A stretch of 64,000 nucleotides of DNA, from contig JAHBTJ010000020.1 of the NCBI GenBank assembly GCA_019638595.1, positions 62,001 through 126,000 of the forward strand. Reading direction: 5' to 3'. Under the pieces are notes generated by a model that worked only from the letters and a program-made list of their open reading frames with translations, searched no databases and was not told where the DNA came from. The stretch is from Chitinophagaceae bacterium. GTDB lineage: Bacteria > Bacteroidota > Bacteroidia > Chitinophagales > Chitinophagaceae. The position numbers were made by a program, and so were the translations under genes. Of the stretch, positions 36,223-54,366 are shown piece after piece (positions within the stretch are counted from its first letter, which is position 1; the number at the start of each line of letters is the position of its first letter).

Positions 36223-36342
36223 CTGCATGAAAAAATGATTTGTAGAAATAAATCCCCTTATGATACATATATGCTCCCTAAAAGGTTTGTGCAAAATCCG
36301 TGAAATTTTCCCGGTCAAATACACTCCCCCGAGCCGGTCATG

Positions 36343-36378
36343 TAAACCTGTAAGCCATGCCGGTATTGCAGGTTTTTA
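36343..36378 (+). terminator. Probable terminator after alaS
   Basis: AACCTG and CAGGTT form a six-base-pair stem with a long loop, followed by TTTT on the plus strand, in the gap between alaS and the Dps gene. The loop is long, so this is moderate evidence. Confidence 0.5.
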
Positions 36379-36421
36379 TGTTATGGTGTAATTCTTGTAC
36401 TTTAGGTAAAAAACATATATT

Positions 36422-36895
36422 ATGGCTAAAGTAAATATTGGCATCACAGAGAAAAACCGCCAGTCCGTTGCAAAAATCCTGAACCAGATCCTGGCCGATG
36501 AACACGTATTATATAACAAAACACGCAGCTACCACTGGAACGTGGAAGGGCCCAGCTTTATGGAATTGCATAAGCTGTATGAGGCACAATACACCGAGCT
36601 TGCCGAAGTAATTGACGAAATAGCCGAGCGGATCCGCACCATTGGTTACTACGCGGAAGGCAGGCTGAGCGAACTGCTGAAACTGGCATCCTTAAAGGAA
36701 CCTGCCGTACCGACAGGGTTTAAAGAACAAATTCCGAACCTTGATGCCGATCATGAAAAGATAATTATCAACCTGCGCAAACAGATAGATGAGTTTGATG
36801 AAAAATATAAAGATGTAGGCAGCAGCGATTTTTTAACCGGCTTACTAAAGCAGCATGAAAAAATGGCCTGGATGCTGAGGTCTTACCTGGGATAA
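36422..36895 (+). CDS. dps: Dps/ferritin-like DNA-protection protein
   Basis: A 157-aa four-helix protein of normal Dps length. ADEHVLYNKTRSYHWNVEGP carries the ferroxidase His, and FMELHKLYEAQYTELAEVIDEIAERIRTIG carries the second-subunit acidic ligands. It oxidises and stores iron and shields DNA under stress. It stands alone downstream of alaS, separated by a probable terminator. Confidence 0.93.
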   Translation: MAKVNIGITEKNRQSVAKILNQILADEHVLYNKTRSYHWNVEGPSFMELHKLYEAQYTELAEVIDEIAERIRTIGYYAEGRLSELLKLASLKEPAVPTGFKEQIPNLDADHEKIIINLRKQIDEFDEKYKDVGSSDFLTGLLKQHEKMAWMLRSYLG

Positions 36896-36995
36896 AACTT
36901 TGTTACAGGTTGCAGGATACAGGTTCAGGAGATTTATTGTTTATGGTTTGAGGTTTGTAGTTGTGCAACCTGTAACCTGCGACTTGCAACCACTG

Positions 36996-38006
36996 CTACT
37001 TTGTGGAATCTCTTATTACCAGTTTCGTGCGTAATGAAATAGTTTGTTCCGGGCTTTCAGGTTTTAATATAGCGTCAATCAAAATGCCAATTGCCAGCTT
37101 TCCTACTTCATAACTGGGTTGCATAACCGTAGTAAGGGATGGTTGTATGACTGCACTTACGGGATCGTCATTAAAACCCGCCACTTTGATATCGCCGGGT
37201 ACATTGATTCCTTTTTTTTGCATGTATTGAATAGCGGATATAGCCGAAAGATCATTAATAAAAAAGATACCGTCGGGCATAGGCCGGCTCGCAATAATTT
37301 TTTTGATGGCGGGCAGCGCGTCTTCTTCAAACGCATTGCAGCGTAATATCAATTTGTCATTTACAGGCAACCCGTATTTTGCCAGGGCGTCTATATAACC
37401 TTTCATCCTGTTGGCAGATACAGATGCGTTTACCGGGCCTGCTAGGTGGGCTATCCTTTTGCATCCTTTTCTGATAAGGTGTTCCACTGCTTTAAAAGCA
37501 CCTTCGTATTCATCTACAATAACTTTACTACAGGTAAAATCCGGAAGCGTTCTGTCGAACATTACAACAGGAACGCCCAACTGTTTTACTTTTTCAAATT
37601 CCGCGGTGTTTTTAGTGTCTTTCGACACAGAGATCAGCAGCCCGTCTACATGACAGGCTAATAGTTTTTTAATACTTCGTATTTCCTGTCCCGCGTCTTC
37701 ATTACTCTGGCAGAACATCAGGTGATAATCATAGGCATTGGCAACTTCCGTCATACCACTTAATGCATCCGAAAAATAATTAGAATGAATGGCGGGTACT
37801 ACAACTCCGATGATTTTTGTTTTTTTCTTTACCAACCCCTGTGCCATTACATTAGGCTCATAGCTAAGCTCGGCAGCAAGTTTTAATACCGCGTTTTTTG
37901 TTCCGGGATTGATATCCGGAGCATTGCGCAACGCGCGTGATACGGTAGACACAGAAATATTCAATTGACGGGCAAGGTCTTTAATTGTTACTTGTGCAGT
38001 GCTCAT
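36996..38006 (-). CDS. LacI-family transcriptional regulator of the glycan locus
   Basis: A 336-aa protein. An N-terminal helix-turn-helix (TIKDLARQLNISVSTVSRAL, residues 7-26) and hinge helix are followed by a periplasmic-binding-protein-like sugar domain. It is divergent from the GH127 gene, and a perfect 18-base palindrome lies between them at 38094-38111. A near copy precedes susC 16 kb away. LacI regulators usually repress or activate adjacent sugar-use genes and release or bind on a sugar signal. The ligand is not known, though the GH127 enzymes point to an L-arabinofuranose-containing glycan. Confidence 0.93.
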   Translation of the reverse strand: MSTAQVTIKDLARQLNISVSTVSRALRNAPDINPGTKNAVLKLAAELSYEPNVMAQGLVKKKTKIIGVVVPAIHSNYFSDALSGMTEVANAYDYHLMFCQSNEDAGQEIRSIKKLLACHVDGLLISVSKDTKNTAEFEKVKQLGVPVVMFDRTLPDFTCSKVIVDEYEGAFKAVEHLIRKGCKRIAHLAGPVNASVSANRMKGYIDALAKYGLPVNDKLILRCNAFEEDALPAIKKIIASRPMPDGIFFINDLSAISAIQYMQKKGINVPGDIKVAGFNDDPVSAVIQPSLTTVMQPSYEVGKLAIGILIDAILKPESPEQTISLRTKLVIRDSTK

Positions 38007-38093
38007 TTCTCAATATATCAAACATTGAACAATATAGAGTATTCATTTACGTAACCGGTAAGCCAACCTCTTCAAATTTAACCAATTACCGGA

Positions 38094-38111
38094 AACGTTA
38101 CCGGTAACGTT
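38094..38111. promoter_or_regulatory. LacI-type operator, copy 1
   Basis: AACGTTACCGGTAACGTT is a perfect 18-base palindrome centred on CCGG, in the gap between the divergent LacI-type regulator and the GH127 gene. Half-site fragments (ATTACCGG, GTAACCGG) lie within 60 bases upstream. A 16-of-18 match is found upstream of susC (54499-54516). Confidence 0.8.
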
Positions 38112-38170
38112 ATATCAGAAAACAGGGCAATTATTTGAACGGCTTACTTTGTTTGCTCTAATTTAGAAAC

Positions 38171-40180
38171 ATGAAGAAACTGATTTACCTACTGCTGTTG
38201 AAATGTTTTACTATGAATATAGCTGCTGCTCCATTACCGGATACTACCAGGCAATTCTACCTTCAAAACCGCTATCCGCTTCACACCAAACCTTATATGG
38301 CATTACCGCTCGGAAGTATTCAACCCAAAGGCTGGTTGTATCATCAACTTGCAGATATGAAAAACGGAATGTGCGGCAAGCTGGATGAATTGTATCCGCA
38401 GGTATTGGGCAAACGCAATGGCTGGCTGGGTGGCGACGGTGATGTGTGGGAGCGGGGACCTTACTGGTTAGATGGGCTGGTACCTCTTGCTTATATTCTG
38501 AATGATGAAGCATTAAAAGCAAAAGCGCAGGAGTGGGTTGAATGGAGTTTGCAACACCAGATGAATGATGGTTATTTTGGACCGGTTCCGCCGGAGAAAG
38601 AGCCTGAACCAGAGGCCGGTCTGCAGCGGGATAGAGCGCGTGACTGGTGGCCTAAAATGGTAATGCTGAAAGTATTGCAGCAGTATTATGATGCAACGAA
38701 AGATAAAAGAGTCATTGATCTGATGTTAAAATACGCGCGTTATCAATTAAAAACATTACCTCTTACACCCCTTGGTCACTATTCGTGGTGGGGCTCGCAG
38801 CGTGGCGGCGATAACCTGCTGGTGGTATATTGGTTGTACAACATAACAGGTGAAAAATTCCTGCTCGATCTTGCCGAAATAGTGCACAGGCAATCTTTTG
38901 ACTGGTATGGTACTTTTATGCATACCGACGATGTAGCCACCCCTTATAAATTCCATACAGTGAACCTGGCGCAGGGTATTAAAGAACCGCTTATTTATTA
39001 TCAGCAACATCCCGAACAGAAATACGTGGATGCAGTGAATAAGGCTTTCAGGGATATCCGCCACTACCTGGGGCAGGCGCAGGGTATGTATGGCGCCGAT
39101 GAGCTAACGAGGGGAAACGATCCTGTACACGGTTCGGAATTGTGTTCGTCGGTGGAAATGATGTATTCGCTTGAAAATATGATTTCTATAATCGGCGACG
39201 TAAAAATGATGGACCATCTTGAGAAGATCGCATACAACGCTTTGCCTGCACAGGTTGAAAACAATTATGTGGGCAGGCAGTATTACCAGCAGGCCAACCA
39301 GGTAATGGTAACCAGGCACCACCGGAATTTTGTTACAGCTTACGATGGTACCGATCAGTGTTTTGGAGTACTCACAGGGTTTCCCTGCTGCACCACCAAT
39401 ATGCACCAGGGTTGGCCTAAATTTGTGCAGAGTCTTTGGTTTGCTACCGAAGACCTGGGACTGGCAGCCCTCCTGTATGGAGCCTCAGAAATTACGGCTA
39501 AAGTGGCGGATGGATCGGAAGTGAAATTTACAGAAGAAACCAATTATCCTTTTTCAGATAAAATAAAGTTCAGGTATCATTCGAAAAAGCAATTGTTGTT
39601 CCCGTTGCATCTGCGCATACCCTCGTGGTGTAAACAGGCGTCCATCACAATTAATGGAGAAGTTTGGATGACTCCTGAAGGAGGCCAGATCGTAAAAGTG
39701 AATCGTAAATGGAAAGATGGAGATGAAGTGGAATTGCAATTGCCTATGGAAGTAAAGACCAGCAGGTGGTTCAACAATTCGGTTGCGGTGGAGAGGGGGC
39801 CGCTGGTGTATGCCCTGCGTATTGAAGAAAGCTGGAAAAATGTAAAAGGCACGGACAAATACGGCGACTATCGGGAAGTGCGCCCGTTATCGCCCTGGAA
39901 TTACGGCTTATGGGATGATGCATTAAAGCAACCTGCTTCAATGTTTAAAGTACAGATAAAAGAAAAGGTTCCGGATCGTCCATGGAATAATAAAGATGCC
40001 CCTGTAGAGATAACTTTGAAGGCTAAACGAATTCCGGAATGGCAATTGTACAATGAAACGTCTGGGCCATTGCCGTATAGTCCTATCCGTTATCTGAAAG
40101 ATCAGCCCGCAGAAAATATTACGCTGGTACCTTACGGTTGTACTAAATTAAGGATCAGCCAGTTCCCGGTGGCGCTGTAG
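38171..40180 (+). CDS. GH127-type beta-L-arabinofuranosidase-like glycoside hydrolase
   Basis: A 669-aa protein with a signal peptide (first ~20 residues). It has the (alpha/alpha)6 barrel of the former DUF1680 family: LGGDGDVWERGPYWLDGLVPLAY, then GSELCSSVEMM with Glu323 and Cys325, and GFPCCTTNMHQGW with Cys406 and Cys407. In the GH127 family a Glu and three Cys of this kind bind zinc and supply the nucleophilic Cys. All four are present, so the protein should be active. Specificity may be GH127 or a sister family such as GH146. It is divergent from the LacI gene. Confidence 0.88.
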   Translation: MKKLIYLLLLKCFTMNIAAAPLPDTTRQFYLQNRYPLHTKPYMALPLGSIQPKGWLYHQLADMKNGMCGKLDELYPQVLGKRNGWLGGDGDVWERGPYWLDGLVPLAYILNDEALKAKAQEWVEWSLQHQMNDGYFGPVPPEKEPEPEAGLQRDRARDWWPKMVMLKVLQQYYDATKDKRVIDLMLKYARYQLKTLPLTPLGHYSWWGSQRGGDNLLVVYWLYNITGEKFLLDLAEIVHRQSFDWYGTFMHTDDVATPYKFHTVNLAQGIKEPLIYYQQHPEQKYVDAVNKAFRDIRHYLGQAQGMYGADELTRGNDPVHGSELCSSVEMMYSLENMISIIGDVKMMDHLEKIAYNALPAQVENNYVGRQYYQQANQVMVTRHHRNFVTAYDGTDQCFGVLTGFPCCTTNMHQGWPKFVQSLWFATEDLGLAALLYGASEITAKVADGSEVKFTEETNYPFSDKIKFRYHSKKQLLFPLHLRIPSWCKQASITINGEVWMTPEGGQIVKVNRKWKDGDEVELQLPMEVKTSRWFNNSVAVERGPLVYALRIEESWKNVKGTDKYGDYREVRPLSPWNYGLWDDALKQPASMFKVQIKEKVPDRPWNNKDAPVEITLKAKRIPEWQLYNETSGPLPYSPIRYLKDQPAENITLVPYGCTKLRISQFPVAL

Positions 40181-41105
40181 TTTCCCGTCATTTCGAGCTA
40201 CCAATTAGGCGGCGCCTCCATCATTGTGGCGTGACAAGTTGCATTTGTTTGTTACAGCTTTCCGATTTGTAAGTATCCTAAGTCGGCTAAGTTATCAGCA
40301 AACGTATCAGGGCTCTGTTGCTGAATTCACAGTACTAAAGCTTCATCAATCCCGCAAGGCGGGACGAAATCGGCCGTAGTCCCTGCCCCGTCCGTACCGG
40401 CACGGGCGGACGTCCGTCAGGCGGGGATTTCGGGCGCCTGCCCGATCTGAAGACCGTTCAGGCGGGGCTTTTTGGTTACTTTTTTCCGCAAAAAAGTAAC
40501 AGAAAAAAGCGGAGGGATTGTAGTTGAAAGGAAAACTGAGTTTGTGTAACAACAAATTTAAGTTCATAACCAGTTGATAAATAGCAAGCTGGATGAAATG
40601 TCATTGGCACCGAGCCTTCAATTAAATCACTTTGCTTCGAGGGAGAAATCTGCCTGACTTTTGCGCTATTACTTAGCATTGGTACTACTGCCCAATGGAT
40701 CTACCTTCAGTGAGAACCATTTTCATTGCGACAAAATCAGAAATAAGTAAATACCGCAATAAAGTTCTCCCTCGCGAAAGTTACATTAAACTATAACGTT
40801 CGTATCGGCTCAGTCGAGATAACAGGAACCGCAGCCGTTCATTTCGAACCGAATTAATGGATGCATAAATGATAAAGCACTTTTTCATTTGTGAGAACTT
40901 TTCTCACTGAAGGTAAAATCTGCCGGCTCTTGTATCTACACACAACGTTTATAGCCTCTAAGAGTTACTCCTTAAAACACAAAAACCTGCTGTTATTTTC
41001 ATATAAAATTTGTAAATTAACGCTTCAACCCGGTTGCTTGTAATACCTGCAATATCATCTTCATAAACCCTTGTCCGTAATTTCAAGTAGGAGAGCTAAG
41101 GGAAT
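40181..41105. other. 925-base gene-free stretch with hairpins and inverted repeats
   Basis: No gene is supported. About 40350-40470 is GC-rich with several CGGGC/GCCCG hairpins. At 40475-40500 GTTACTTTTTT and AAAAAAGTAAC form a perfect 11-base-pair stem. From about 40600 to 40930 there are nested inverted repeats: GAGGGAGAA near 40639 with TTCTCCCTC near 40765, and ACCTTCAGTGAGAA at 40703-40716 with TTCTCACTGAAGGT at 40901-40914. The stretch marks the left edge of the CRISPR block. Confidence 0.6.
40475..40500. repeat. Perfect 11-bp inverted repeat (hairpin)
   Basis: GTTACTTTTTT, loop CCGC, AAAAAAGTAAC. Directly preceded by GGCGGGGCTTTTTGG. It could act as a terminator after the GH127 gene or be a dispersed intergenic element. 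Confidence 0.75.
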
Positions 41106-41131
41106 AAAAAAGCCCCGTAGATAGACGAGGC
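41106..41131 (-). terminator. Terminator of the tracrRNA
   Basis: On the minus strand GCCTCGT and ACGGGGC form a seven-base-pair stem (one G-U pair) closing a six-base loop, followed by TTTTTT. Confidence 0.85.
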
Positions 41132-41203
41132 ACTAAATGTTTTCACAACGGAATAATCCTTATTGTGAATTGCTTTCAGTTGTAAATATAAGTACTCTGC
41201 GTG
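41106..41203 (-). ncRNA. tracrRNA of the type II-C system
   Basis: On the minus strand a 16-base anti-repeat (41163-41178, TGAAAGCAATTCACAA) is complementary to the start of the CRISPR repeat in crRNA sense (TTGTGAATTGCTTTCA). It is followed by AATAAGGATTATTCCG, a nexus-like hairpin of type II-C tracrRNAs, then GTTGTGAAAACATTTAG, and a terminator stem GCCTCGT/ACGGGGC with six U. The predicted start is near 41203 from a -33/-7 promoter, giving a length of about 98 nt. It is transcribed opposite to cas9. The RNA pairs with crRNA to load Cas9 and, in some systems, allows RNase III processing. The family identity is inferred from structure and context. Confidence 0.9.
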
Positions 41204-41209
41204 ATATTT

Positions 41210-41239
41210 AAAATTTAAAAAGGATGTAGTTGCAATCAA
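41210..41239 (-). promoter_or_regulatory. Promoter of the tracrRNA
   Basis: On the minus strand TTG (41239-41237) is separated by exactly 19 bases from TAAATTTT (41217-41210), one mismatch from the TAnnTTTG -7 consensus of Bacteroidota. The predicted start site near 41203 is about 25 bases before the anti-repeat. Confidence 0.65.
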
Positions 41240-41320
41240 GGACAATATCATGTATAACAGATTGTAATATAATTATTTGAGAATAGGAGTATGTAAGGGA
41301 GGGTAAGAATCCCCTTTGGT

Positions 41321-41346
41321 TGTGAATTGCTTTCAATTCACAACAT
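41321..41346. repeat. Perfect palindrome built from the CRISPR repeat end
   Basis: GTTGTGAATTG, loop CTTT, CAATTCACAAC: an 11-bp perfect stem. The first 20 bases equal the first 20 bases of the CRISPR repeat in crRNA sense, and on the minus strand the last 20 equal the end of the repeat as it lies in the array. It sits between the tracrRNA promoter and the -7 box of the possible small RNA. It may be a relic repeat or a regulatory hairpin. Confidence 0.8.
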
Positions 41347-41355
41347 TCTTTTGTA

Positions 41356-41427
41356 CCTTTGATGTGAACTATTTGGATCGGGGTGTCCCCAATCGGAATG
41401 AAGCCGGAGCAATCCGGCTTTGTTTTT
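41356..41427 (+). ncRNA. Possible small RNA between tracrRNA and the DUF3800 gene
   Basis: A perfect -7 box TACCTTTG lies at 41356-41363, with TTTC 19 bases upstream as a weak -33. About seven bases later a short sequence begins with a hairpin (GATCGGGG TGT CCCCAATC, 41378-41396, one mismatch) and ends in a textbook terminator AAGCCGGA GCAA TCCGGCTT TGTTTTT (41401-41427). No open frame is present. The predicted RNA is about 57-60 nt. Function unknown; expression is not shown. The terminator also lies at the 3' end of the DUF3800 gene on the other strand. Confidence 0.5.
41401..41427 (+). terminator. Rho-independent terminator
   Basis: AAGCCGGA and TCCGGCTT form a perfect eight-base-pair stem with loop GCAA, followed by TGTTTTT on the plus strand. 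The T-run is on the plus strand only, so it serves a plus-strand transcript and not the DUF3800 gene. Confidence 0.85.
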
Positions 41428-42160
41428 AGGGAAAATTTTTTAATCCATAACGTTTTCCATTCTTGTTATAGAATTTATGCTTGAATACTTCAAAGGATGG
41501 ATTGACCCTGTGAGGTTCTAAAACATAACGGGCTATCGGGTATGCAATCAAATCAGCCAATTGAAGTCCATTAATATTTTCTTTCTTCGATTTAAATTGA
41601 ATGGATAAATTATACGCTTGTATTCTTTCTGGGGTTACATAGCCGGTTCCTCTTGATAAAATTCTTTGAAAATGTTCTTCCAGCTTTTTATCTTCTTTTT
41701 TGCCTCTCTTTTCAATAATGATATTTAGCCCGCTAATTTTGATTTTGAGATCGTCAAGGAAAAAAATCGCCCGTTCAATTATGAATGATAGACCAATCTC
41801 ATAAACATCGTCTGAAATCCTGCCATATTTCCTTATGTAATTATCCTTCTTTATTGCTGAAGCTATAATCCTGTAATTTCTGGATGCAATAACATTATCC
41901 AATTGCTGATAAAAGCTTGCCTTTAATACTAAGTCGAATAAATACTTAAATTCTTTCTCGCATTTCCGTATGTCACGGGAGTGAAAAATGACATTTTCGC
42001 TTTGCCATATAGATCGCTTTATCGTATTAAAATCTTGTCGTAATAATTCATATTCTCCACTTGAAATAACAACTCCACATAGCAGGAACAAAGGAAAATT
42101 CGGGTTGAGGTTATTCAATCCGTGATCCCCGCTTTCATCTATGAATAAATTAAAAAACAT
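41426..42160 (-). CDS. DUF3800 domain protein
   Basis: About 244 aa from MFFNLFIDESGDHG; the open frame continues upstream to a GTG inside the CRISPR-repeat remnant, which is an unlikely start. FIDESGDHG at the N-terminus and the C-terminal NGLQLADLIAYPIARYVLEP define DUF3800, whose conserved Asp residues suggest an RNase H-like nuclease fold. The family is frequent in mobile and defence regions and has no firm biochemical role. Here it separates the tracrRNA from cas9 and is divergent from cas9, sharing a 170-base control region. It may be a cargo gene or an accessory CRISPR gene. Confidence 0.8.
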   Translation of the reverse strand: MFFNLFIDESGDHGLNNLNPNFPLFLLCGVVISSGEYELLRQDFNTIKRSIWQSENVIFHSRDIRKCEKEFKYLFDLVLKASFYQQLDNVIASRNYRIIASAIKKDNYIRKYGRISDDVYEIGLSFIIERAIFFLDDLKIKISGLNIIIEKRGKKEDKKLEEHFQRILSRGTGYVTPERIQAYNLSIQFKSKKENINGLQLADLIAYPIARYVLEPHRVNPSFEVFKHKFYNKNGKRYGLKNFP

Positions 42161-42176
42161 ATATTTATCAAATGTC

Positions 42177-42254
42177 AAAAAATGTGGGGAGTAAAAGCAA
42201 TTCACAACATACTAATCTCAAGTTAATTAGATATAGTATATTTCCCCACACATA
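42177..42254 (-). ncRNA. Candidate short-guide RNA with degenerate CRISPR repeat (cas9 autoregulator?)
   Basis: On the minus strand a perfect -7 box TATATTTG (42262-42255) is followed by TGTGGGGA (42250-42243), then an A/T-rich stretch ending AGATTAGTAT, then GTTGTGAATTGCTTT (42208-42194), which is identical to the first 15 bases of the CRISPR repeat in crRNA sense. TCCCCACA (42190-42183) then pairs with TGTGGGGA, and TTTTTT follows. The ten bases abutting the repeat remnant recur at 42271-42280 upstream of cas9. There is no good -33 element. The RNA would be about 70-75 nt. The alternative is that this is simply the leader of the DUF3800 mRNA with chance symmetry. Confidence 0.45.
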
Positions 42255-42281
42255 CAAATATATAGAAGATAGATTAGTATG
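42208..42281. promoter_or_regulatory. Inverted repeat in the DUF3800-cas9 control region
   Basis: CATACTAATCT (42208-42218) and AGATTAGTATG (42271-42281) are perfect 11-base inverted copies separated by 52 bases. The right copy lies directly before the probable -33 region of cas9 (-7 candidate TATATTTA at 42306-42313). It may be a protein operator, or the target and guide parts of the short-guide RNA described above. Confidence 0.65.
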
Positions 42282-42330
42282 AGTTTTTTTATTTTTTAAA
42301 AATACTATATTTACCTACCAAATCATTGCT

Positions 42331-45300
42331 ATGCCACATCCCAAAACTATTCTTGGCCTTGACCTCGGCACCACTTCCATCGGATTTGCCCAAATTACCG
42401 AAGGCGAAAACCCTGAGCAATCATCAATAGAAAGAATTGGCGTTCGTGTGAACCCATTGACTACGGATGAACAAACCAATTTTGAAAAAGGCAAGCCTGT
42501 TTCGGTCAATGCGGACAGAACCTTAAAACGCGGGGCAAGACGAAATCTCGACCGCTATCAGGACAGGCGAAAAAACCTGATAGATGCTTTATTGAAAGCA
42601 AACATTATTACAAAGGATACCATTCTGGCTGAGGAGGGAAAAAACACAACGCACCAAACCTGGTATTTGCGTGCAAAAGCGACAAAAGAAAAGTTAGAAA
42701 AAGAAGAACTGGCTCGTGTGTTTTTGGCGATTAACAAAAAACGCGGTTACAAAAGCAGCCGGAAAGCCAAAAACGAGGACGAAGGACAAGCCATTGACGG
42801 AATGGCTGTTGCCAAACGTTTGTATGAAGAAAACCTTACGCCGGGGCAACTGGCTTACCAATTACTGAAAGAGGGTAAAAAACATATCCCCGATTTTTAC
42901 CGTTCCGATTTACAGGCGGAGTTTGATAAGGTGTGGAACAGGCAAAAAGAGTTTTATCCCGAAATTTTCACAGATGAATTTTATTTGGAATTAAAAGGAA
43001 AGGGACAACGGGCTACTTCGGCTTCGTTTTGGGGTAAATATCAATTCAATACGGCCGAAAACAAAGGCAACCGGGAGGAAAAGAAACTACAGGCCTACAG
43101 ATGGCGGAGCGAAGCTATTTCTAAGCAGTTGGAAAAAGAAGAGGCGGCTTATGTGATAACAGAAATCAACAGTAATCTCAATAATTCGAGCGGTTATCTG
43201 GGCGCTATTTCGGACAGAAGCAAGGAGCTTTATTTCAATAAAGAAACCGTAGGGCAATATCTCTACAAACAATTGCAGCAAAATCCGCATACACGGCTGA
43301 AAAACCAGGTGTTTTACCGGCAGGATTATCTGGATGAATTTGAAGCGATATGGAATGAACAGCAAAAATATCACCCCGAACTGACAGAAGAATTAAAAAC
43401 CGAAATCCGCGATATTGTTATTTTTTATCAGCGAAAACTAAAATCGCAAAAAGGATTGATTAGTTTTTGTGAGTTTGAAAGCAAAGAAGTAGAGGTTAAC
43501 GGCAAGAAGAAAACCATCGGTTTAAAAGTTGCACCCAAATCTTCGCCTTTGTTTCAGGAGTTTAAGATTTGGCAGGTACTGAACAATGTTTTGGTTCGTA
43601 AAAAAGGAAGCCGGAAACGGGTTGTAAAGGAAAACAACCAGGTTTCCTTATTCGATGAAGAAAAAGAAATTTTTGTATTCGATTTAGAAACCAAGCGAAT
43701 TTTGTTCGATGAGCTGAACATCAAAGGCAACCTGACTTCGGCTAAAATCATTGAGATACTGGGCTATAAACCTGCTGATTGGGAATTGAATTATTCGACA
43801 TTGGAAGGCAACCGCACCAGCAAATCGTTGTATGAAGCATATCTGAAAATTTTGGAACTGGAGGGGTACGATGTAAAGGATCTGCTAAAGGTAAAATCCA
43901 ACAAAGACGAAGTTGAGTTAGATGATTTGAACGTTTCTGCTGCCGAAATCAAAAAGATGGTCAAATCCATTTTTGAAACCCTAAACATCAATACCGAAAT
44001 TTTAGAATTTAATGCAGAACTGGACGGAAAGGATTTTGAAAAACAAAAATCGTATCAGTTGTGGCATTTGCTTCATTCTTACGAGGGCGATGATTCGCCA
44101 AGTGGCAATGAAAAGCTGTACGAATTATTGGAAAAAAAATTTGGGTTTAAAAGAGAGCATAGCCAGCTTTTAGCCAATATCACTTTATCTGACGACTACG
44201 GAAATCTTTCGACCAAGGCGATGCGGAAAATCTGTCCATATATCAAAGAAAACCAGTACAGCACGGCTTGCGAACTGGCTGACTATCGTCATTCCGCTTC
44301 CTCATTGACGAAAGAAGAAATTGCCAGCCGCCCGTTAAAAGATAAACTGGATTTGCTCAAAAAGAACAGCCTGCGTAATCCTGTGGTAGAGAAAATCCTC
44401 AACCAGATGGTGAATGTGGTAAACACGCTGATTGAAACCAACAGAGCAAAAGACCCGTACTTCCGTTTCGATGAAATACGTATCGAGCTGGCTCGTGAGC
44501 TAAAGAAAAATGCCAAAGAACGGGCGGAAATGACAACGAATATCAGTGCGGCAAAGCTGGCTCGCGAGAAGATTTTTAAACTGTTGCAAACGGAATTTGG
44601 CGTTAAAACCCCAACCCGAAACGACATTATTCGCTATCGTTTATACGAGGAATTAAAGAATAACGGTTACAAGGATTTATATACTAATCAATACATTCCG
44701 AGGGAAATCCTGTTCAGCAAGCAAATAGATATTGACCATATTATTCCGCAATCAAAACTTTTTGACGACAGTTTCTCTAACAAAACGGTTATCTATCGCC
44801 AAACCAATTTGGACAAGGGAAACAAAACGGCTTATGATTATATCGAAAGTAAATTTGGAAACGAAAAAGCAGAAGAATACAAATCAGGGATAGAGGCTTT
44901 GTACAAAGCTAAAGAAGATGGCATTTCCAAAGCCAAATACCAAAAACTGCTCAAAAAAGAAAGCGAGATTGGCGATGGTTTTATCGAAAGAGATTTGAGA
45001 GACAGCCAATATATTGCCAAAAAAGCGAAAAATATGCTGTATGAGATTACCCGTTCGGTAGTTTCCACATCGGGCAGCATTACCGACAGGCTTCGTGAGG
45101 ACTGGGGTTTGGTGAATATTATGCAGGAGCTGAATTTTGAGAAATTCAAATCATTGGGCCTAACCGAAATGGTGGAGAAAAAAGATGGTACGTTCAAAGA
45201 GCGGATAACCGATTGGAGCAAACGCAACGACCACCGCCACCACGCTATGGATGCGTTGACGGTGGCTTTTACCAAACATCAGCATATCAACTATTTGAAC

Positions 45301-46629
45301 CATCTCAATGCCCGCTATAATGAAACACATAAAGAATACAAAAACATTAGGGGCATTGAAGAAAAGCTGACACATTGGGAGTACGATGACGAAGGCAATA
45401 AAAAGCGCATATTCAATTTGCCAATCCTGAATTTTAGAGAACAAGCCAAAAAACATTTGGAAAATGTATTGATTTCGCACAAAGCCAAGAACAAAGTGGT
45501 CACCAAAAACAAGAACAAAACCAAATCTAAAAACGGTGAAAAAGTAAAGACAGAACTCACGCCAAGGGGACAATTGCACAAAGAAACCGTTTACGGCAGG
45601 TATCAATATTATGTAAACAAAGAGGAAAAAGTAGGAACAAAATTTGATGAAGAAACAATCAATAAAGTAAGCAACCCCCTATATAAAGCTGTATTGCTTC
45701 AGCGGCTTAAAGAAAACGGCAACGACCCGAAAAAAGCATTTGCGGGTAAAAATGCTTTGAGTAAAAACCCGATTTATCTGAACGAAGCAAAAACGGAAAC
45801 ATTGCCTGAAATCGTTAAACTAACCTGGTTGGAGGAAGATTACTCAATACGTAAAGATGTAACGCCTGAAAATTTTAAAGACGAAAAATCAATACAAAAA
45901 GTTTTAGACCAAAAAGTAAAGACTATTTTGTTAAACCGCTTGCAGGAATACGGTAACGACCCGAAAAAAGCTTTCTCCGATTTGGATAAAAACCCGATTT
46001 GGCTCAATGAAGCAAAAGGCATATCCATTAAGCGGGTAACCATTTCAGGCGTGAAAAATGCCGAATTTCTTCATTACAAAAAAGACCATAAAGGAAATTA
46101 TGTGTTAGATGATGCCGGAAAGAAAATACCGGTTGATTTTGTAAGTACGGGCAATAATCACCACGTAGCCATTTATCGGGATGAAACAGGAAATTTGCAG
46201 GAAAGAGTCGTGTCTCTTTTTGAAGCAGTACAGCTTGTTAATGCAGATTTACCGGTTGTTGATAAGCAATACAATCAGGGGTTAGGCTGGCAATTTCTCT
46301 TTACCATGAAGCAAAACGAATACTTTGTATTCCCGAACGACAAAACAGACTTCAATCCCAAAGAAATTGATTTGCTCGACCCAAAAAACAAGAAGCAGAT
46401 AAGCCCAAATTTGTTTAGGGTGCAAACTCTTTCTGTTGTAAAATATGGAAATAATACTGTAAGAGATTTCCAATTCAGACATCATTTAGATGCAACAAAA
46501 GCGAGTGACGTTAAAAAGGAACTACAAGGAATAACTTATCAGCAAATTAAGAGTTTGCCGCCTTTAGGAAATATTGTAAAAGTCCGCATTAATCATATTG
46601 GAGAGATTGTAAAAGTTGGGGAATATTAA
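42331..46629 (+). CDS. cas9: Type II-C CRISPR-associated endonuclease Cas9
   Basis: A 1432-aa protein. RuvC-I has Asp11 in ILGLDLGTTSIGFA, the Arg-rich bridge helix is LKRGARRNLDRYQDRRKNL (about residues 66-84), RuvC-II has Glu719 in IRIELARELKKNA, HNH has DIDHIIPQSKLF with Asp802 and His803, and RuvC-III has HHAMDALT with His970 and Asp974. All catalytic residues are present, so it should cut both strands of target DNA. There is no csn2 or cas4, so the system is II-C. The length is large for II-C but common in Bacteroidota. Residues about 1119-1150 and 1197-1230 contain a repeated motif (NGNDPKKAF, NPIYLNEAK). Confidence 0.98.
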   Translation: MPHPKTILGLDLGTTSIGFAQITEGENPEQSSIERIGVRVNPLTTDEQTNFEKGKPVSVNADRTLKRGARRNLDRYQDRRKNLIDALLKANIITKDTILAEEGKNTTHQTWYLRAKATKEKLEKEELARVFLAINKKRGYKSSRKAKNEDEGQAIDGMAVAKRLYEENLTPGQLAYQLLKEGKKHIPDFYRSDLQAEFDKVWNRQKEFYPEIFTDEFYLELKGKGQRATSASFWGKYQFNTAENKGNREEKKLQAYRWRSEAISKQLEKEEAAYVITEINSNLNNSSGYLGAISDRSKELYFNKETVGQYLYKQLQQNPHTRLKNQVFYRQDYLDEFEAIWNEQQKYHPELTEELKTEIRDIVIFYQRKLKSQKGLISFCEFESKEVEVNGKKKTIGLKVAPKSSPLFQEFKIWQVLNNVLVRKKGSRKRVVKENNQVSLFDEEKEIFVFDLETKRILFDELNIKGNLTSAKIIEILGYKPADWELNYSTLEGNRTSKSLYEAYLKILELEGYDVKDLLKVKSNKDEVELDDLNVSAAEIKKMVKSIFETLNINTEILEFNAELDGKDFEKQKSYQLWHLLHSYEGDDSPSGNEKLYELLEKKFGFKREHSQLLANITLSDDYGNLSTKAMRKICPYIKENQYSTACELADYRHSASSLTKEEIASRPLKDKLDLLKKNSLRNPVVEKILNQMVNVVNTLIETNRAKDPYFRFDEIRIELARELKKNAKERAEMTTNISAAKLAREKIFKLLQTEFGVKTPTRNDIIRYRLYEELKNNGYKDLYTNQYIPREILFSKQIDIDHIIPQSKLFDDSFSNKTVIYRQTNLDKGNKTAYDYIESKFGNEKAEEYKSGIEALYKAKEDGISKAKYQKLLKKESEIGDGFIERDLRDSQYIAKKAKNMLYEITRSVVSTSGSITDRLREDWGLVNIMQELNFEKFKSLGLTEMVEKKDGTFKERITDWSKRNDHRHHAMDALTVAFTKHQHINYLNHLNARYNETHKEYKNIRGIEEKLTHWEYDDEGNKKRIFNLPILNFREQAKKHLENVLISHKAKNKVVTKNKNKTKSKNGEKVKTELTPRGQLHKETVYGRYQYYVNKEEKVGTKFDEETINKVSNPLYKAVLLQRLKENGNDPKKAFAGKNALSKNPIYLNEAKTETLPEIVKLTWLEEDYSIRKDVTPENFKDEKSIQKVLDQKVKTILLNRLQEYGNDPKKAFSDLDKNPIWLNEAKGISIKRVTISGVKNAEFLHYKKDHKGNYVLDDAGKKIPVDFVSTGNNHHVAIYRDETGNLQERVVSLFEAVQLVNADLPVVDKQYNQGLGWQFLFTMKQNEYFVFPNDKTDFNPKEIDLLDPKNKKQISPNLFRVQTLSVVKYGNNTVRDFQFRHHLDATKASDVKKELQGITYQQIKSLPPLGNIVKVRINHIGEIVKVGEY

Positions 46630-46630
46630 A

Positions 46631-46800
46631 ATGAACGAAATCATTATCTACCAAACTTCCTGTAATCAAACTCAGATTGATGTGAAATTTGAGGGAAAAA
46701 CCGTATGGCTTACGAAAAAGCAACTATAAGGAAATCCCTTATAGTTTTACGAAAGGAAAGAGGGAAGTAAGCAGGGAAATTTTGTTATATAACCTAAGAC
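46631..46800 (+). pseudogene. Remnant of a RhuM-family gene
   Basis: One base after the cas9 stop, a frame reads MNEIIIYQTSCNQTQIDVKF and GKTVWLTKKQL, then stops (46727-46729). This is the typical N-terminus of RhuM/virulence-type proteins of mobile islands. A shifted frame after it reads YSFTKGKREVSREILLYNLR, matching the later 'EGKRxVxRxxxFYNLDAI' segment of the same family. So the middle is deleted and the frame is broken. It is a decayed gene. Confidence 0.6.
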
Positions 46801-46801
46801 A

Positions 46802-46894
46802 ATGCCGCCTGAAAAAACTAACCCTATTCAAAATAAAAAATCCACCGGTCGCACCAGGGATATTGCAGACGTTGAGTATTTGGAAAAAAAGTAA
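46802..46894 (+). pseudogene. C-terminal fragment of a nucleotidyltransferase-like gene
   Basis: A 30-residue frame ends KSTGRTRDIADVEYLEKK followed by TAA. The 'TGRxxDxADxExLE' ending is typical of C-termini of nucleotidyltransferase proteins of the AbiEii/MNT kind. Nothing of the catalytic part remains. With the RhuM remnant it shows that another cargo was once inserted between cas9 and cas1. Confidence 0.45.
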
Positions 46895-47018
46895 TAAATT
46901 AGGGTTCTGTAAGTAATTAACAGGTCACCTACTCTCCGTTATACCCTCTTAGAAGACTCACAGCTAACCCGCAACAGTATAAAGCGCTACAACCCATTTA
47001 CTATAAACCCTGCTTCCC

Positions 47019-47912
47019 ATGATCAAACGAACCCTTTATTTCGGCAATCCTGCCTATCTCAAAACCAAAAATGATCAACTGGTGATTGAGATGCACGACA
47101 GCGGCGAAACCAAATCGGCGCCCATTGAAGATATCGGGTTACTGATACTGGATCACCAGCAGATCACTATTACACAGGCATTGATGGCAAAGCTGCTTGC
47201 CAATAATACAGCAGTGATTACCTGCGATGATAAGCACCATCCTACGGGCATGATGTTCAACTTAGACGGGAACACTTTGCAAAGCCAGAAATTCCAGGCA
47301 CAAATAGCAGCATCCATGCCGTTAAAAAAGCAATTATGGCAGCAAACCATTACCTGTAAAATAGAAAACCAGGCAGCATTGCTTCAACAGGAAAGGGAAG
47401 AATATAAGCTCCTGCTTACTTATGCTAAGGAAGTTAAAAGCGGTGACAGCGAAAATCATGAAGCTAAAGCCGCAGCTTATTACTGGAAAAGGGTGTTTCC
47501 CGATTTTCTTGAATTCAGCAGATACCCACAAGGCCCACCGCCCAATAACCTGCTGAATTATGGATATGCCATATTAAGAGCGTTGGTTGCCCGCAGTCTT
47601 ACAGCTTCCGGACTGCTGCCTACATTAGGTATTCATCACCGCAATCAATACAATGCCTATTGCCTGGCTGATGATATTATGGAACCCTACCGGCCGTTTG
47701 TTGACAAAGTGGTTTGTCATATTATAAGAGGCAACGGTAAATTTCTTGATATGACACCCTCTATGAAGAAAGCTTTGCTTGAAATTCCGGCAATGGATGT
47801 GCAGATTGACGGTCAGAAGAGTCCGTTAATGAACGCGGTGCAGCGAACCACTGCCAGCCTGGCAAAATGTTATGAAGGAAAAGCAAGAAAAATATTATAT
47901 CCGAACCTATAA
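47019..47912 (+). CDS. cas1: Type II CRISPR adaptation endonuclease Cas1
   Basis: A 297-aa protein, normal for type II. Metal-binding residues are Glu148 (ENHEAKAAAYYW), His206 (LGIHHRNQYNAYCLADDI) and Glu222 (IMEPYRPFVD). It begins MIKRTLYFGNPAYLKTKNDQ. With Cas2 it integrates new spacers. The stop codon lies inside a REP-like palindrome (47904-47954), so the last two residues (Asn-Leu) are encoded by it. It is separated from cas9 by 389 bases of gene debris and from cas2 by 175 bases. Confidence 0.97.
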   Translation: MIKRTLYFGNPAYLKTKNDQLVIEMHDSGETKSAPIEDIGLLILDHQQITITQALMAKLLANNTAVITCDDKHHPTGMMFNLDGNTLQSQKFQAQIAASMPLKKQLWQQTITCKIENQAALLQQEREEYKLLLTYAKEVKSGDSENHEAKAAAYYWKRVFPDFLEFSRYPQGPPPNNLLNYGYAILRALVARSLTASGLLPTLGIHHRNQYNAYCLADDIMEPYRPFVDKVVCHIIRGNGKFLDMTPSMKKALLEIPAMDVQIDGQKSPLMNAVQRTTASLAKCYEGKARKILYPNL

Positions 47913-47954
47913 GGTTTGCAGCGCTGCATAGCCGGGCGGCAAACCTTATAGGTT
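47904..47954. repeat. REP-like palindrome, copy 1 (overlaps the cas1 stop)
   Basis: AACCTATAAGGTTTGC (47904-47919) and GCAAACCTTATAGGTT (47939-47954) form a 16-bp stem around a GC-rich loop. The same element recurs after cas2 (48432-48484) and near the transposase start (49185-49237). These are likely substrates of the REP-associated transposase. Confidence 0.85.
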
Positions 47955-48021
47955 TTCACCGGATAGGTTTTCTGAATCCATCCGAACCCGGCATAAAACA
48001 TTTTTATATTCATTTACGTAG

Positions 48022-48423
<402 letters not shown>

Positions 48424-48431
48424 CAGGCATT

Positions 48432-48484
48432 AAACCTATAAGGTTTGCAGCGCTGCATAGCCGGGCGGCAAACCTTATAGGTTT
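48432..48484. repeat. REP-like palindrome, copy 2
   Basis: AAACCTATAAGGTTTGC (48432-48448) and GCAAACCTTATAGGTTT (48468-48484) form a 17-bp stem. The loop is identical to that of copy 1. A right-arm-only degenerate copy (GGCAAACCCTATAGATTT) lies about 20 bases further on, just before the transposase stop. Confidence 0.85.
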
Positions 48485-48522
48485 TTATTCAACTGCTTTC
48501 CTGCTCGGCAAACCCTATAGAT

Positions 48523-49128
48523 TTATTCGAGGCCAACAGCCCTTTTCAAGTAAACCGGCTGGCTATGATAATCGGTAAAGCCTTTTAAACCGCCAAACCA
48601 ATCAAGCACCTCATCGCGTAAAAGCATTGTCGGCTTTTGAGAAAACATCGTATTATAAGATGACCATTTCCAATCTTCCATTGCCTTACAACACCCGTGA
48701 TGAACAGGATTTTTATGAATATAGAATACAGTTGCGCCGAACTGCTCCTCCTTTTCTATTGCTACTCTTCTTAAAAAATCTATAAACAATGATCCTTTCC
48801 TCGAATTAGCTTTGTTATAGGCTTTGGCATAGCTGTTAAGCAATTTTGAAAATTGCAGCATAATCATTGCAGGAAGTTGCTCCGGGGGAATTTGTTTATC
48901 CGGGAGACGGAAAATTGCAGGCTCTTCTTTTATTTTCACCAGGAAATGAAAATGATTGGGCAGAAGAGAATAACAGTAGGTATCGGCTATCGGGGATACA
49001 TATTTTTTATACCGCTCAAGAAAAAAACAGTAGTTTTCCCCAGTTAAGAACAACTGTTCATTGCCAACAGCTCTACTGAGAATATGGTATTTTTCGCCGG
49101 GTAGCAGCGGAATATGATAATTGGTCAT
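48523..49128 (-). CDS. REP-associated tyrosine transposase (RAYT, Y1 family)
   Basis: About 201 aa from MTNYHIPLLPGEKYHILSRA; the upstream in-frame ATG at 49185 lies in the palindrome. The HUH motif is in YSLLPNHFHFLVKIKEE, and the candidate catalytic Tyr is in LNSYAKAYNKANSRKGSLF. The C-terminal YIHKNPVHHGCCKAMEDWKWSSY is diagnostic of the Y1 REP-associated class. It cuts single-stranded DNA at REP palindromes. Four palindrome copies or half-copies surround it. It sits between cas2 and the array and faces cas2. Confidence 0.92.
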   Translation of the reverse strand: MTNYHIPLLPGEKYHILSRAVGNEQLFLTGENYCFFLERYKKYVSPIADTYCYSLLPNHFHFLVKIKEEPAIFRLPDKQIPPEQLPAMIMLQFSKLLNSYAKAYNKANSRKGSLFIDFLRRVAIEKEEQFGATVFYIHKNPVHHGCCKAMEDWKWSSYNTMFSQKPTMLLRDEVLDWFGGLKGFTDYHSQPVYLKRAVGLE

Positions 49129-49184
49129 TATACAAATTACAAAATCGCCGAACAAAAAAGCTGTATTTTCTGAGCCTTTTGACA

Positions 49185-49237
49185 AAACCTATAAGGTTTG
49201 CCGCGCGGCTCTGCAGCCCTGCAAACCTTATAGGTTT
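49185..49237. repeat. REP-like palindrome, copy 3
   Basis: AAACCTATAAGGTTTGC (49185-49201) and GCAAACCTTATAGGTTT (49221-49237), with a different GC-rich loop from copies 1 and 2. It lies just upstream of the transposase start. Confidence 0.85.
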
Positions 49238-49346
49238 ATTAAGCAGCTTTTAGGAAATCAGGAATAAAAAAATCGCTTTTTCGACCGCTTTTTTCATCCT
49301 GCAAACCCACTCAAACAATTCAAAAACAAGCATTTACCCGATTTCT
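49238..49346. other. Cas-proximal flank of the CRISPR array (possible leader)
   Basis: About 109 A/T-rich bases without a gene between the last REP palindrome and the first repeat, with a short hairpin AAATCGCTTTTTCGACC. The adjacent repeats are intact, and the far end of the array is degenerate, which would make this the leader (integration) end. The direction of crRNA transcription is towards it, so a leader promoter is not expected here. Confidence 0.45.
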
Positions 49347-54092: not shown

Positions 54093-54275
54093 TTGCTGTT
54101 GCGGTAGTGAGGCAGAATAAAGAAGGAGACAACAGATTATATCTGCACGAAGTAACGTTAAAAGAAAAACTCCTTGATAGTAGTTCTAATCCTGTCTTGT
54201 CTGAAACGACACAGGCCACCACGCAAGGAGAGGTGGCAAAGGTATTGAAAAATATTGTAGATGCACACAATAATC
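54093..54275. other. 183-nt protein-coding-like segment in the place of a spacer
   Basis: Between repeat 63 and a truncated repeat is a unique 183-nt segment, six times the normal spacer length. On the plus strand it is open throughout and reads LAVAVVRQNKEGDNRLYLHE and VTLKEKLL, later GEVAKVLKNIVDAHNN. The text is protein-like and resembles, from memory, C-terminal parts of phage or mobile-element polyvalent proteins. It has no start or stop of its own within the segment. Confidence 0.6.
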
Positions 54276-54366
54276 GTTGTAAAAGAACTAAGCTACATAA
54301 TAATTTACTTCGGTATTTTTTGTTTGTCATTATTGTCTCAGTGATATTGTTGAATGTAATTCACAA
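54276..54366. repeat. Interrupted terminal CRISPR repeat
   Basis: 54276-54305 equals the first 30 bases of the repeat (plus-strand reading). It then breaks off into 44 unrelated bases. At 54350-54366 TTGAATGTAATTCACAA matches the last part of the repeat in 15 of 17 positions. The two pieces may be one repeat split by a small insertion. Degeneration at this end suggests the distal (trailer) end of the array. Confidence 0.6.

What the first reader, a model, noticed from the sequence alone, without database searches (positions are those of the whole stretch)
42177..42289. Degenerate CRISPR repeat plus 10-nt seed match upstream of cas9: a possible Cas9 autoregulatory guide RNA in a type II-C system
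Seen: on the minus strand, GTTGTGAATTGCTTT (42208-42194) is exactly the first 15 bases of the crRNA-sense repeat, about the length that pairs with the tracrRNA anti-repeat. The ten bases directly before it (AGATTAGTAT) occur again in protospacer orientation at 42271-42280, followed by GAGTTTTTT, upstream of cas9. Upstream on the minus strand is a perfect -7 box TATATTTG, and downstream TCCCCACA closes a stem with TGTGGGGA and is followed by six T. Known: in type II-A, the long tracrRNA form uses a target match of about 11 nt to bind Cas9 at its own promoter without cutting, and other types use degenerate-repeat guides on cas promoters. Inference: this would be an independent II-C version. The target overlaps both the putative cas9 -33 region and the guide's own -7 box, so it could limit both.
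Basis: partly seen in the sequence, partly recalled or inferred. Interest (0 to 1): 0.88.

Follow-up and report, generated by a model that had tools for sequence, protein, structure and literature searches.

The report
Cas9-guided switch beside a DUF3800 gene
A bacterial CRISPR-Cas9 immune system carries, next to cas9, a tiny extra guide RNA that appears to aim Cas9 at the switch region controlling cas9 and a neighbouring possible suicide or defence gene, so that losing Cas9 activity would turn that gene on.

Summary
A 15-nt repeat copy lies at 42208-42194 (-); the ten bases before it recur as a target at 42271-42280, upstream of cas9. Among 89 cas9 loci scanned (up to 2.5 kb upstream; 14 have less sequence), five have an intact DUF3800 gene beside cas9. 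All five, and none of the other 84, show a non-tracrRNA repeat whose preceding 8-10 bases recur nearby followed by NRRTTTT. Guide and target change together (AGATTAGTAT, ATATTAGTAT, AGATTAGTAG, CTTATTGA, CTTTATGG). In two of five loci the guide repeat fits the tracrRNA better than the array repeat does. In L156 the target lies at the DUF3800/guide promoters, about 300 nt from cas9. I read it as a crRNA-like RNA by which Cas9 plus tracrRNA represses, without cutting, a promoter region shared by guide, DUF3800 and, in four of five loci, cas9. It resembles CreR and CrePA, but uses Cas9, and DUF3800 has its own conserved RNA that Rfam 15 does not match. Transcription, Cas9 binding, the PAM and DUF3800 toxicity are untested; the L156 and L053 matches (8 nt) are the weakest.

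The parts
42194..42208 (-). degenerate single CRISPR repeat of the guide RNA (GTTGTGAATTGCTTT)
   Evidence: exact match to the 5' end of the crRNA-sense repeat; predicted pairing with the tracrRNA anti-repeat, dG -21.3
42209..42238 (-). spacer-like part of the guide; seed is 42209-42218 (AGATTAGTAT)
   Evidence: changes together with the target in relatives
42271..42280 (+). 10-nt target of the guide seed
   Evidence: only other exact copy of the seed in 64 kb
42281..42287 (+). PAM-like GAGTTTT (NRRTTTT at six targets in five loci)
   Evidence: inferred post hoc, no array protospacer found
42255..42262 (-). -7-type promoter box TATATTTG for guide and, by read-through, DUF3800
   Evidence: exact TANNTTTG; same distance to the target in L032, 4 nt more in L049; box consensus recalled
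42243..42250 (-). 5' arm of the stem that encloses the guide (TGTGGGGA)
   Evidence: stem kept with different letters in L049 and L053, not seen in L156
42177..42190 (-). 3' arm TCCCCACA followed by six T (terminator-like)
41426..42160 (-). DUF3800 protein gene, 244 aa (stop codon included)
   Evidence: Pfam PF12686, E 6.5e-21; cas9-linked copies form one clade, support 100/99
41366..41427 (+). convergent small RNA (sRNA2; ends estimated), core 41375-41396 GGATCGGGGTGTCCCCAATCGG plus terminator
   Evidence: strict pattern at 15 of 22 DUF3800 genes, a variant core by alignment at 6 more; compensatory pairs; no Rfam 15 family at gathering score and no convincing weaker one
41319..41344 (+). palindrome of two repeat pieces GTTGTGAATTGCTTTCAATTCACAAC just upstream of the sRNA2 promoter; role unknown
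   Evidence: related form in L032
41106..41178 (-). tracrRNA (anti-repeat GAAAGCAATTCACAAT, core AAGGATTATTCCG, terminator; ends estimated)
   Evidence: an anti-repeat with this kind of core in 68 of 89 loci, 60 of them on this strand within 400 nt of cas9; fits the published Bacteroidetes II-C tracrRNA position (PMC9067536 passages)
42331..46629 (+). cas9, 1432 aa
   Evidence: TIGR01865 E 2e-135; HNH and RuvC III domains
47019..47912 (+). cas1
   Evidence: TIGR03639
48037..48423 (+). cas2 (start codon uncertain)
   Evidence: TIGR01573
49347..54321 (-). CRISPR array, 46-nt repeats, crRNA sense on minus

Best explanation
The minus-strand element is a one-repeat crRNA-like guide RNA that belongs to a DUF3800 module lying between the tracrRNA gene and cas9. 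Shown by sequence: the repeat copy, the seed-target match, and their joint change across genomes. Inferred: it is transcribed from TATATTTG at 42262-42255, pairs with the tracrRNA, loads Cas9 and guides it to 42271-42280 with PAM-like GAGTTTT. There the match is only 10 nt, and position 11 is mismatched in all three loci that share the site (guide G, target T), so Cas9 should bind without cutting. Bound Cas9 would block the promoter of the guide and, by read-through of the terminator-like stem, of DUF3800, and would cover the putative cas9 -33 region. The result would be feedback: ample Cas9 keeps guide, DUF3800 and cas9 low; lost, inhibited or crRNA-saturated Cas9 releases them. DUF3800 (reported RNase H-like fold, own RNA partner) would be the output, plausibly an abortive or back-up defence nuclease.
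For: Same parts with intact DUF3800 in five loci: window, L032, L049, L053, L156. Seed-target matches of 10, 10, 10, 8 (two targets) and 8 nt, with letters changing together. In the cross matrix the window, L032, L049 and L053 guides reach 10, 10, 10 and 8 in their own regions. Shuffle counts: 15, 93, 11 and 439 of 20000. Control: 0 of 68 tracrRNA-derived pseudo-seeds in the same regions have 8 nt or more followed by NRRTTTT, against 5 of 5 guides. Guide repeat to tracrRNA: L053 shows a compensatory C-G (dG -25.3 against -23.4 for the array repeat); L049 -21.1 against -19.3. The enclosing stem keeps pairing with different letters in L049 and L053. Association: 5 of 5 linked intact DUF3800 loci have a guide with target, 0 of 83 loci without linked DUF3800; the sixth linked copy (L148) has no guide and matches DUF3800 only from residue 36 on. 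The six linked DUF3800 genes form one clade of 21.
Against: No transcript or binding data. The PAM was read off the same sites and could not be checked; in L053 the PAM-like TAGTTTTG is itself an exact -7-type box. 8-nt matches are not rare: the L053 guide also finds 8 nt in the L156 region, and bare 10-nt matches occur for 3 of 68 control seeds. L156 is weak: with its guide masked only 7 nt remained (2331 of 20000 shuffles); the 8-nt target with GGGTTTT holds only if the repeat is counted from ATTGCG, in the other register it is absent; a longer 9-10 nt match is a hairpin with the guide itself; its repeat has a C-A mismatch to the tracrRNA. In window, L032 and L156 the array repeat pairs with the tracrRNA better than the guide repeat does. 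In L053 the targets sit at the cas9 side, about 42 nt from the nearest exact DUF3800-ward box. 15 standalone DUF3800 copies have no guide beside them, so DUF3800 does not need Cas9 to be tolerated. Toxicity is assumed. The linked copies share one origin, so 5 of 5 is not five independent events; 14 of 89 loci have under 2.5 kb upstream, 7 under 1 kb.
Confidence: 0.68

Rival explanations
1. Pure cas9 autoregulation, as the first reader said (a II-C counterpart of CreR or tracr-L). DUF3800 is a passenger whose arrival separated tracrRNA from cas9, and the guide evolved to limit Cas9.
For: In four of five loci the target lies just upstream of cas9; in window and L049 its PAM side lies 15-25 nt upstream of a one-mismatch cas9 box, and in L053 both targets are on the cas9 side rather than at the guide.
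Against: No guide with target in any of 83 scanned loci without linked DUF3800. In L156 the target is about 300 nt from cas9 at the DUF3800/guide promoters. Guide and DUF3800 lie in line on one strand in window, L032, L049 and L053.
Confidence: 0.24
2. A protein operator: a repressor binds the inverted repeat ATACTAATCT...AGATTAGTAT, and the repeat copy next to it is coincidental or decayed.
For: The two 10-mers are inverted repeats, the seed also pairs inside the guide RNA in window, L032 and L156, and joint letter changes would also fit a co-evolving operator.
Against: The match reaches the repeat boundary in all five loci and NRRTTTT follows at the target only. L053 uses an unrelated sequence with two direct targets. 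The repeat part changes together with the tracrRNA in L053.
Confidence: 0.06
3. A decaying CRISPR or tracrRNA remnant with a chance 10-nt match.
For: Six of eleven non-tracrRNA repeat copies have no target with the motif (L007, L032 at -1019, L053 at -1229, L075, L109, window 41319).
Against: Shuffle counts, 0 of 68 controls with 8 nt plus motif, and matches kept through changes in several genomes.
Confidence: 0.03
4. A Racr-like repeat decoy that occupies Cas9 or tracrRNA for the benefit of the DUF3800 element, without any DNA target.
For: Solitary repeats that mimic arrays are described as RNA anti-CRISPRs (PMC10651486, start of abstract seen in a search listing); the module looks inserted.
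Against: A decoy needs no seed, target and PAM-like motif that change together.
Confidence: 0.04

Closest known systems
CreR (cas-regulating RNA; type I-B, I-E, V-A)
   Same: crRNA-like RNA with partial match to a promoter at the cas genes, so that the effector represses it (passages of PMC12737573 and PMC13131331)
   Different: here Cas9 with tracrRNA, a single repeat, and linkage to DUF3800; in L156 the target is not at cas9
CrePA / CreTA (CRISPR-repressed toxin-antitoxin)
   Same: an ectopic degenerate repeat RNA directs the effector to the promoter of a linked non-cas gene, so that loss of the effector releases it (passages of PMC12737573 and PMC9458426)
   Different: those described in the passages seen use Cascade or another type I effector; the toxin is an RNA (CreT) or a protein that hits cell division (CreP); here a DUF3800 protein with its own RNA, toxicity untested, guide and gene apparently on one transcript line
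tracr-L (S. pyogenes type II-A)
   Same: Cas9 held at its own promoter through a short match, 11 nt, with a PAM (passages of PMC11417352)
   Different: tracr-L is a long form of the tracrRNA acting as a single guide; here a separate RNA with a repeat that must pair with tracrRNA
scaRNA (Francisella; Neisseria II-C)
   Same: small RNA tied to a type II system; the Francisella one has a degenerated repeat and a 15-bp match used by Cas9 for repression (PMC9458426 passage)
   Different: Francisella scaRNA acts on lipoprotein genes elsewhere; the Neisseria II-C scaRNA acts mainly on an mRNA with at most an indirect Cas9 role (PMC13431127 passages)
DUF3800 proteins linked to class 2 CRISPR (Cas12a2, V-A2, VI-F) and DUF3800 RNA motifs of Rfam
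   Same: same protein family, reported RNase H fold, earlier link to ncRNAs (PMC10910872 and PMC12669027 passages; Rfam DUF3800-I and -IX named in PMC11701678)
   Different: those passages concern type V and VI; here type II-C with a Cas9 guide, and the RNA matches no Rfam 15 family

Membership tests
Type II-C CRISPR-Cas | cas9-cas1-cas2 without csn2 or cas4, with tracrRNA and array | tested here: met
   cas9, cas1 (type II model), cas2; tracrRNA. Absence of csn2/cas4 judged only from the ORF list of 36000-52000, at least 80 aa, not by profile search
CreR | degenerate repeat RNA with short seed match plus PAM upstream of the cas genes | tested here: inconclusive
   sequence level: 4 of 5 loci just upstream of cas9, 1 of 5 not; PAM inferred post hoc
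CreR | effector bound to the RNA represses cas transcription | not testable with these tools
   needs RNA and reporter work
CreR | generally not coupled to a toxin gene (as described in PMC12737573) | tested here: inconclusive
   guide with target only beside DUF3800: 5 of 5 against 0 of 83, but DUF3800 is not shown to be a toxin
CrePA | guide target lies in the promoter of the linked protein gene | tested here: inconclusive
   window, L032, L049, L156 yes by promoter boxes; L053 not clear
CrePA | linked protein is toxic when released | not testable with these tools
   DUF3800 only identified by Pfam; no PADLOC, PHROGs or NCBIfam match
CrePA / CreTA | type I effector | tested here: not met
   effector is Cas9
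tracr-L | guide is part of the tracrRNA transcript | tested here: not met
   the tracrRNA is 1 kb away, ends in its own terminator-like stem, and is separate
scaRNA | trans target in host gene 5' UTR | not tested
   only a 7-nt seed plus NRRTTTT scan of the own genome: 8 sites (2 for the reversed control), one of them the target at C13; the other seven were not examined
DUF3800 (PF12686) | Pfam model above cut-off | tested here: met
   76 bits against 21
Rfam DUF3800 RNA motifs | covariance model match | tested here: not met
   no DUF3800 family among the matches

The most novel reading that the evidence does not exclude
A type II counterpart of CrePA: Cas9, through a tracrRNA-paired single-repeat guide, keeps a DUF3800 effector (itself paired with its own structured RNA) silent, and anti-CRISPR action or loss of Cas9 fires it, giving Cas9 an addiction or herd-immunity module, with cas9 feedback as a side arm.
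Probability: 0.43. Interest if true: 0.92.

Novelty: new variant of a known kind. Interest (0 to 1): 0.82.

Why it matters
CRISPR-guarded toxins and crRNA-like autorepressors are described, in the passages seen, for type I and V-A effectors. A Cas9 version that needs tracrRNA, uses an 8-10 nt seed and guards a DUF3800 gene would extend the principle to type II. It would give DUF3800, an uncharacterised family reported near class 2 CRISPR and ncRNAs, a testable role, and it predicts that anti-Cas9 proteins switch it on. It also makes the question of II-C self-regulation directly testable with a two-plasmid reporter.

Tried and rejected
PAM from protospacers: three degenerate spacer patterns in IMG/VR gave no match. 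Whole arrays of window, L046 and L038 against phages gave weak matches or matches to repeats (15 rows listed each), and no protospacer was taken from them. The sRNA2 core pattern in 395 phylum genomes matched only the own genome. Considered that the repeat copy is the tracrRNA itself: rejected, the tracrRNA core is at 41161 on the minus strand. Considered that the palindrome at 41319 or the L053 repeat at -1229 is a second guide: no seed match of 7 nt or more in its region. Considered that the ORF could start at GTG 42205 through the repeat: in L049 a TAG follows the repeat, by reading its sequence, so an extended start is not conserved. A first version of the control scan under-searched the minus strand; one search is the corrected one and is cited for counts. 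Literature: ten searches of an open-access library, most with capped lists, showed no type II CreTA/CrePA/CreR with DUF3800 among the rows listed; Shmakov 2023 and Weinberg 2017 are not held, and subscription papers were not seen. The papers cited were seen as passages or search listings, none in full.

Full report
What is there. The window holds a type II-C locus: cas9 42331-46629, cas1, cas2, array 49347-54321. The crRNA-sense repeat reads on the minus strand and begins GTTGTGAATTGCTTTC. The tracrRNA is on the minus strand at about 41178-41106, with the core AAGGATTATTCCG. In the 89 cas9 loci compared, 68 show an anti-repeat with this kind of core at up to 2 mismatches, 60 of them on the same strand within 400 nt upstream of cas9, as published for Bacteroidetes II-C tracrRNAs (PMC9067536 passages). 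In the window about 1 kb lies between tracrRNA and cas9: a convergent small RNA (sRNA2), a DUF3800 gene on the minus strand (Pfam E 6.5e-21), and the element of the finding.

The observation. Repeat copy, 10-nt seed and target, -7-type box, stem and T-run are at the stated places. One correction: the target lies 9-18 nt upstream of the -7 box and does not overlap it. In the 170-nt gap a match this long reaching the repeat boundary arises in 15 of 20000 shuffles, and it is the longest such match in the 64 kb apart from the guide itself.

Relatives. One genome-contig scan kept the best 80 of 184 Cas9 loci. With the window, five loci (L004-L007, L012), and L139, L148 and L156, 89 loci were scanned for repeat copies within 2.5 kb upstream of cas9 (L002 and L003 were dropped as copies of L032 and L037; 14 loci hold less than 2.5 kb upstream and 7 less than 1 kb, so absence there is weaker). 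There were 79 hits at up to 2 mismatches: 68 classed as tracrRNA by the core next to them, 11 not. Five of the 11 have a seed match of 8 nt or more followed by NRRTTTT: window (10 nt, GAGTTTT), L032 (10, GAGTTTT), L049 (10, GAATTTT), L053 (8, two targets, TAGTTTT), L156 (8, GGGTTTT). The other six (L007, L032 at -1019, L053 at -1229, L075, L109, window at -1012) have none. Among the 68 tracrRNA pseudo-seeds none has 8 nt plus NRRTTTT; three have a bare 10-nt match in their region and one has 7 nt plus the motif. The motif was read off the same sites, so this control is partly circular, and the pseudo-seeds resemble each other.

Guide and target change together. Window AGATTAGTAT/AGATTAGTAT, L032 ATATTAGTAT/ATATTAGTAT, L049 AGATTAGTAG/AGATTAGTAG; L053 uses CTTATTGA and L156 CTTTATGG. 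In the three related sites position 11 is G in the guide and T in the target, so the match is kept at ten. That fits binding without cutting, as for the 11-nt tracr-L target (PMC11417352 passages). Shuffle counts were 93, 11 and 439 of 20000 for L032, L049 and L053. Weak points: the L053 guide also finds 8 nt in the L156 region, so an 8-nt match alone proves little. For L156 the masked test saw only 7 nt (2331 of 20000), because a longer match overlaps the guide as a hairpin. Its target with GGGTTTT holds only when the repeat is counted from ATTGCG.

Guide and tracrRNA. The guide repeat of L053 (GTTGCG) fits its tracrRNA (CGCAA) better than the array repeat (GTTGTG) does: -25.3 against -23.4 kcal/mol. 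L049 likewise: -21.1 against -19.3. In window, L032 and L156 the array repeat pairs better (-23.8 to -23.9 against -19.3 to -21.4). A stem enclosing the guide is kept with different letters in window/L032, L049 and L053; in L156 I saw none.

Why DUF3800 matters. Searching the fetched loci, DUF3800 was found next to cas9 in window, L032, L049, L053, L156 and L148 only. The five with an intact gene all have a guide with target. L148, whose cas9 is a distant one (25% identity), has no repeat copy at up to 2 mismatches besides its tracrRNA, and its DUF3800 matches only from residue 36 on, with a stop visible near the expected start. The six form one clade among 21 DUF3800 proteins (support 100/99). 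The other 15 are standalone, with no cas9 match in the stretch held and no repeat copy within 3 kb: L121 has two and L135 one 2-mismatch repeat-like sites farther off, the others none. So in this sample the guide goes with the cas9-linked DUF3800, not with cas9 as such. Surveys: DUF3800 at E <= 1e-20 in 5 of 396 order genomes, at E <= 1e-50 in 8 of 395 class genomes, at E <= 1e-60 in 7 of 301 genomes around L053 and in 3 of 394 family genomes; the sets overlap and each counts its centre genome.

What the target controls. By TANNTTTG-type boxes (consensus recalled, not measured), the window, L032 and L049 targets lie 9-22 nt upstream of the guide's own exact box. Their PAM side lies 15-25 nt upstream of a one-mismatch cas9 box in window and L049; L032 has no such box. 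In L156 the target lies 11-18 nt upstream of the guide's box (5851-5858), and its PAM side 22-28 nt upstream of a one-mismatch DUF3800 box, about 300 nt from cas9. In L053 both targets lie at the cas9 side, and the second PAM-like TAGTTTTG is itself an exact box. In window, L032 and L049 there is little room for another DUF3800 promoter between guide and start codon, so DUF3800 is probably read through from the guide promoter (inference).

sRNA2. A convergent RNA with core GGAYNGGGGUGUCCCCRRUCGG and a terminator shared with DUF3800 is at the 3' end of DUF3800: the strict pattern matched 15 of 22 genes, a variant core is visible by alignment in six more, and the distant L120 lacks it. In 20 aligned cores (12 distinct; the gapped L149 left out) six of eight stem pairs form in all rows, with changes on both sides at pairs 6-16 and 8-14; pair 4-18 forms in 15 of 20 and 5-17 in 12 of 20. 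No Rfam 15 family matches convincingly. DUF3800 was earlier linked to ncRNAs (PMC10910872 passages). It may be an RNA antitoxin or cofactor (inference).

Comparison. It works like CreR and CrePA (PMC12737573, PMC13131331, PMC9458426 passages): a degenerate repeat RNA turns the effector into a repressor by partial promoter match. It is not a member of those as described (type I or V-A effectors), nor of tracr-L (separate from tracrRNA) or scaRNA. Hence: new variant of a known kind, with a real chance that it is a Cas9-guarded protein effector. Ten library searches showed no such report among the rows listed; subscription papers were not seen.

Noticed in passing
window 41366-41427 and 3' ends of 20 other DUF3800 genes: Conserved structured RNA convergent to DUF3800, with or without CRISPR linkage (strict pattern in 15 of 22, variant in 6 more), without a convincing Rfam 15 match.
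   Followed up: yes
window 41319-41344: Perfect palindrome made of a repeat 5' end and its inverse just upstream of the sRNA2 promoter; altered but still mostly palindromic in L032, a half copy in L053; no seed target found.
   Followed up: partly
L148 3881-4692 (G1257): Incomplete DUF3800 copy with sRNA2 and this type of tracrRNA beside a very different Cas9 (25% identity), as if cas9 had been replaced.
   Followed up: partly
L156 4880-4915: What looks like a tracrRNA 3'-end relic on the far side of DUF3800, in addition to the tracrRNA by cas9: the module may have come with a duplicated tracrRNA (by eye).
   Followed up: no
L159 601-642 (Riemerella phage RAP44 31660-31701) and ten further listed phage records, one a duplicate of RAP44: Un-annotated stretch 95-96% identical to a Flavobacterium II-C repeat (L046): possibly a Racr-like RNA anti-CRISPR.
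   Followed up: partly
window 49347-54321: 9 of 62 spacers are variants of one sequence around TTGTTGCAT, as if one gene start were targeted again and again; no protospacer found.
   Followed up: partly
window 54093-54321: After the last full array unit, about 180 nt of unrelated DNA and then a partial repeat.
   Followed up: no
window 47904-47956, 48433-48485, 49186-49238: REP-type palindromes around a gene that resembles a REP-associated tyrosine transposase (48523-49185; 52 bits, below the model's cut-off of 80) between cas1 and the array.
   Followed up: no
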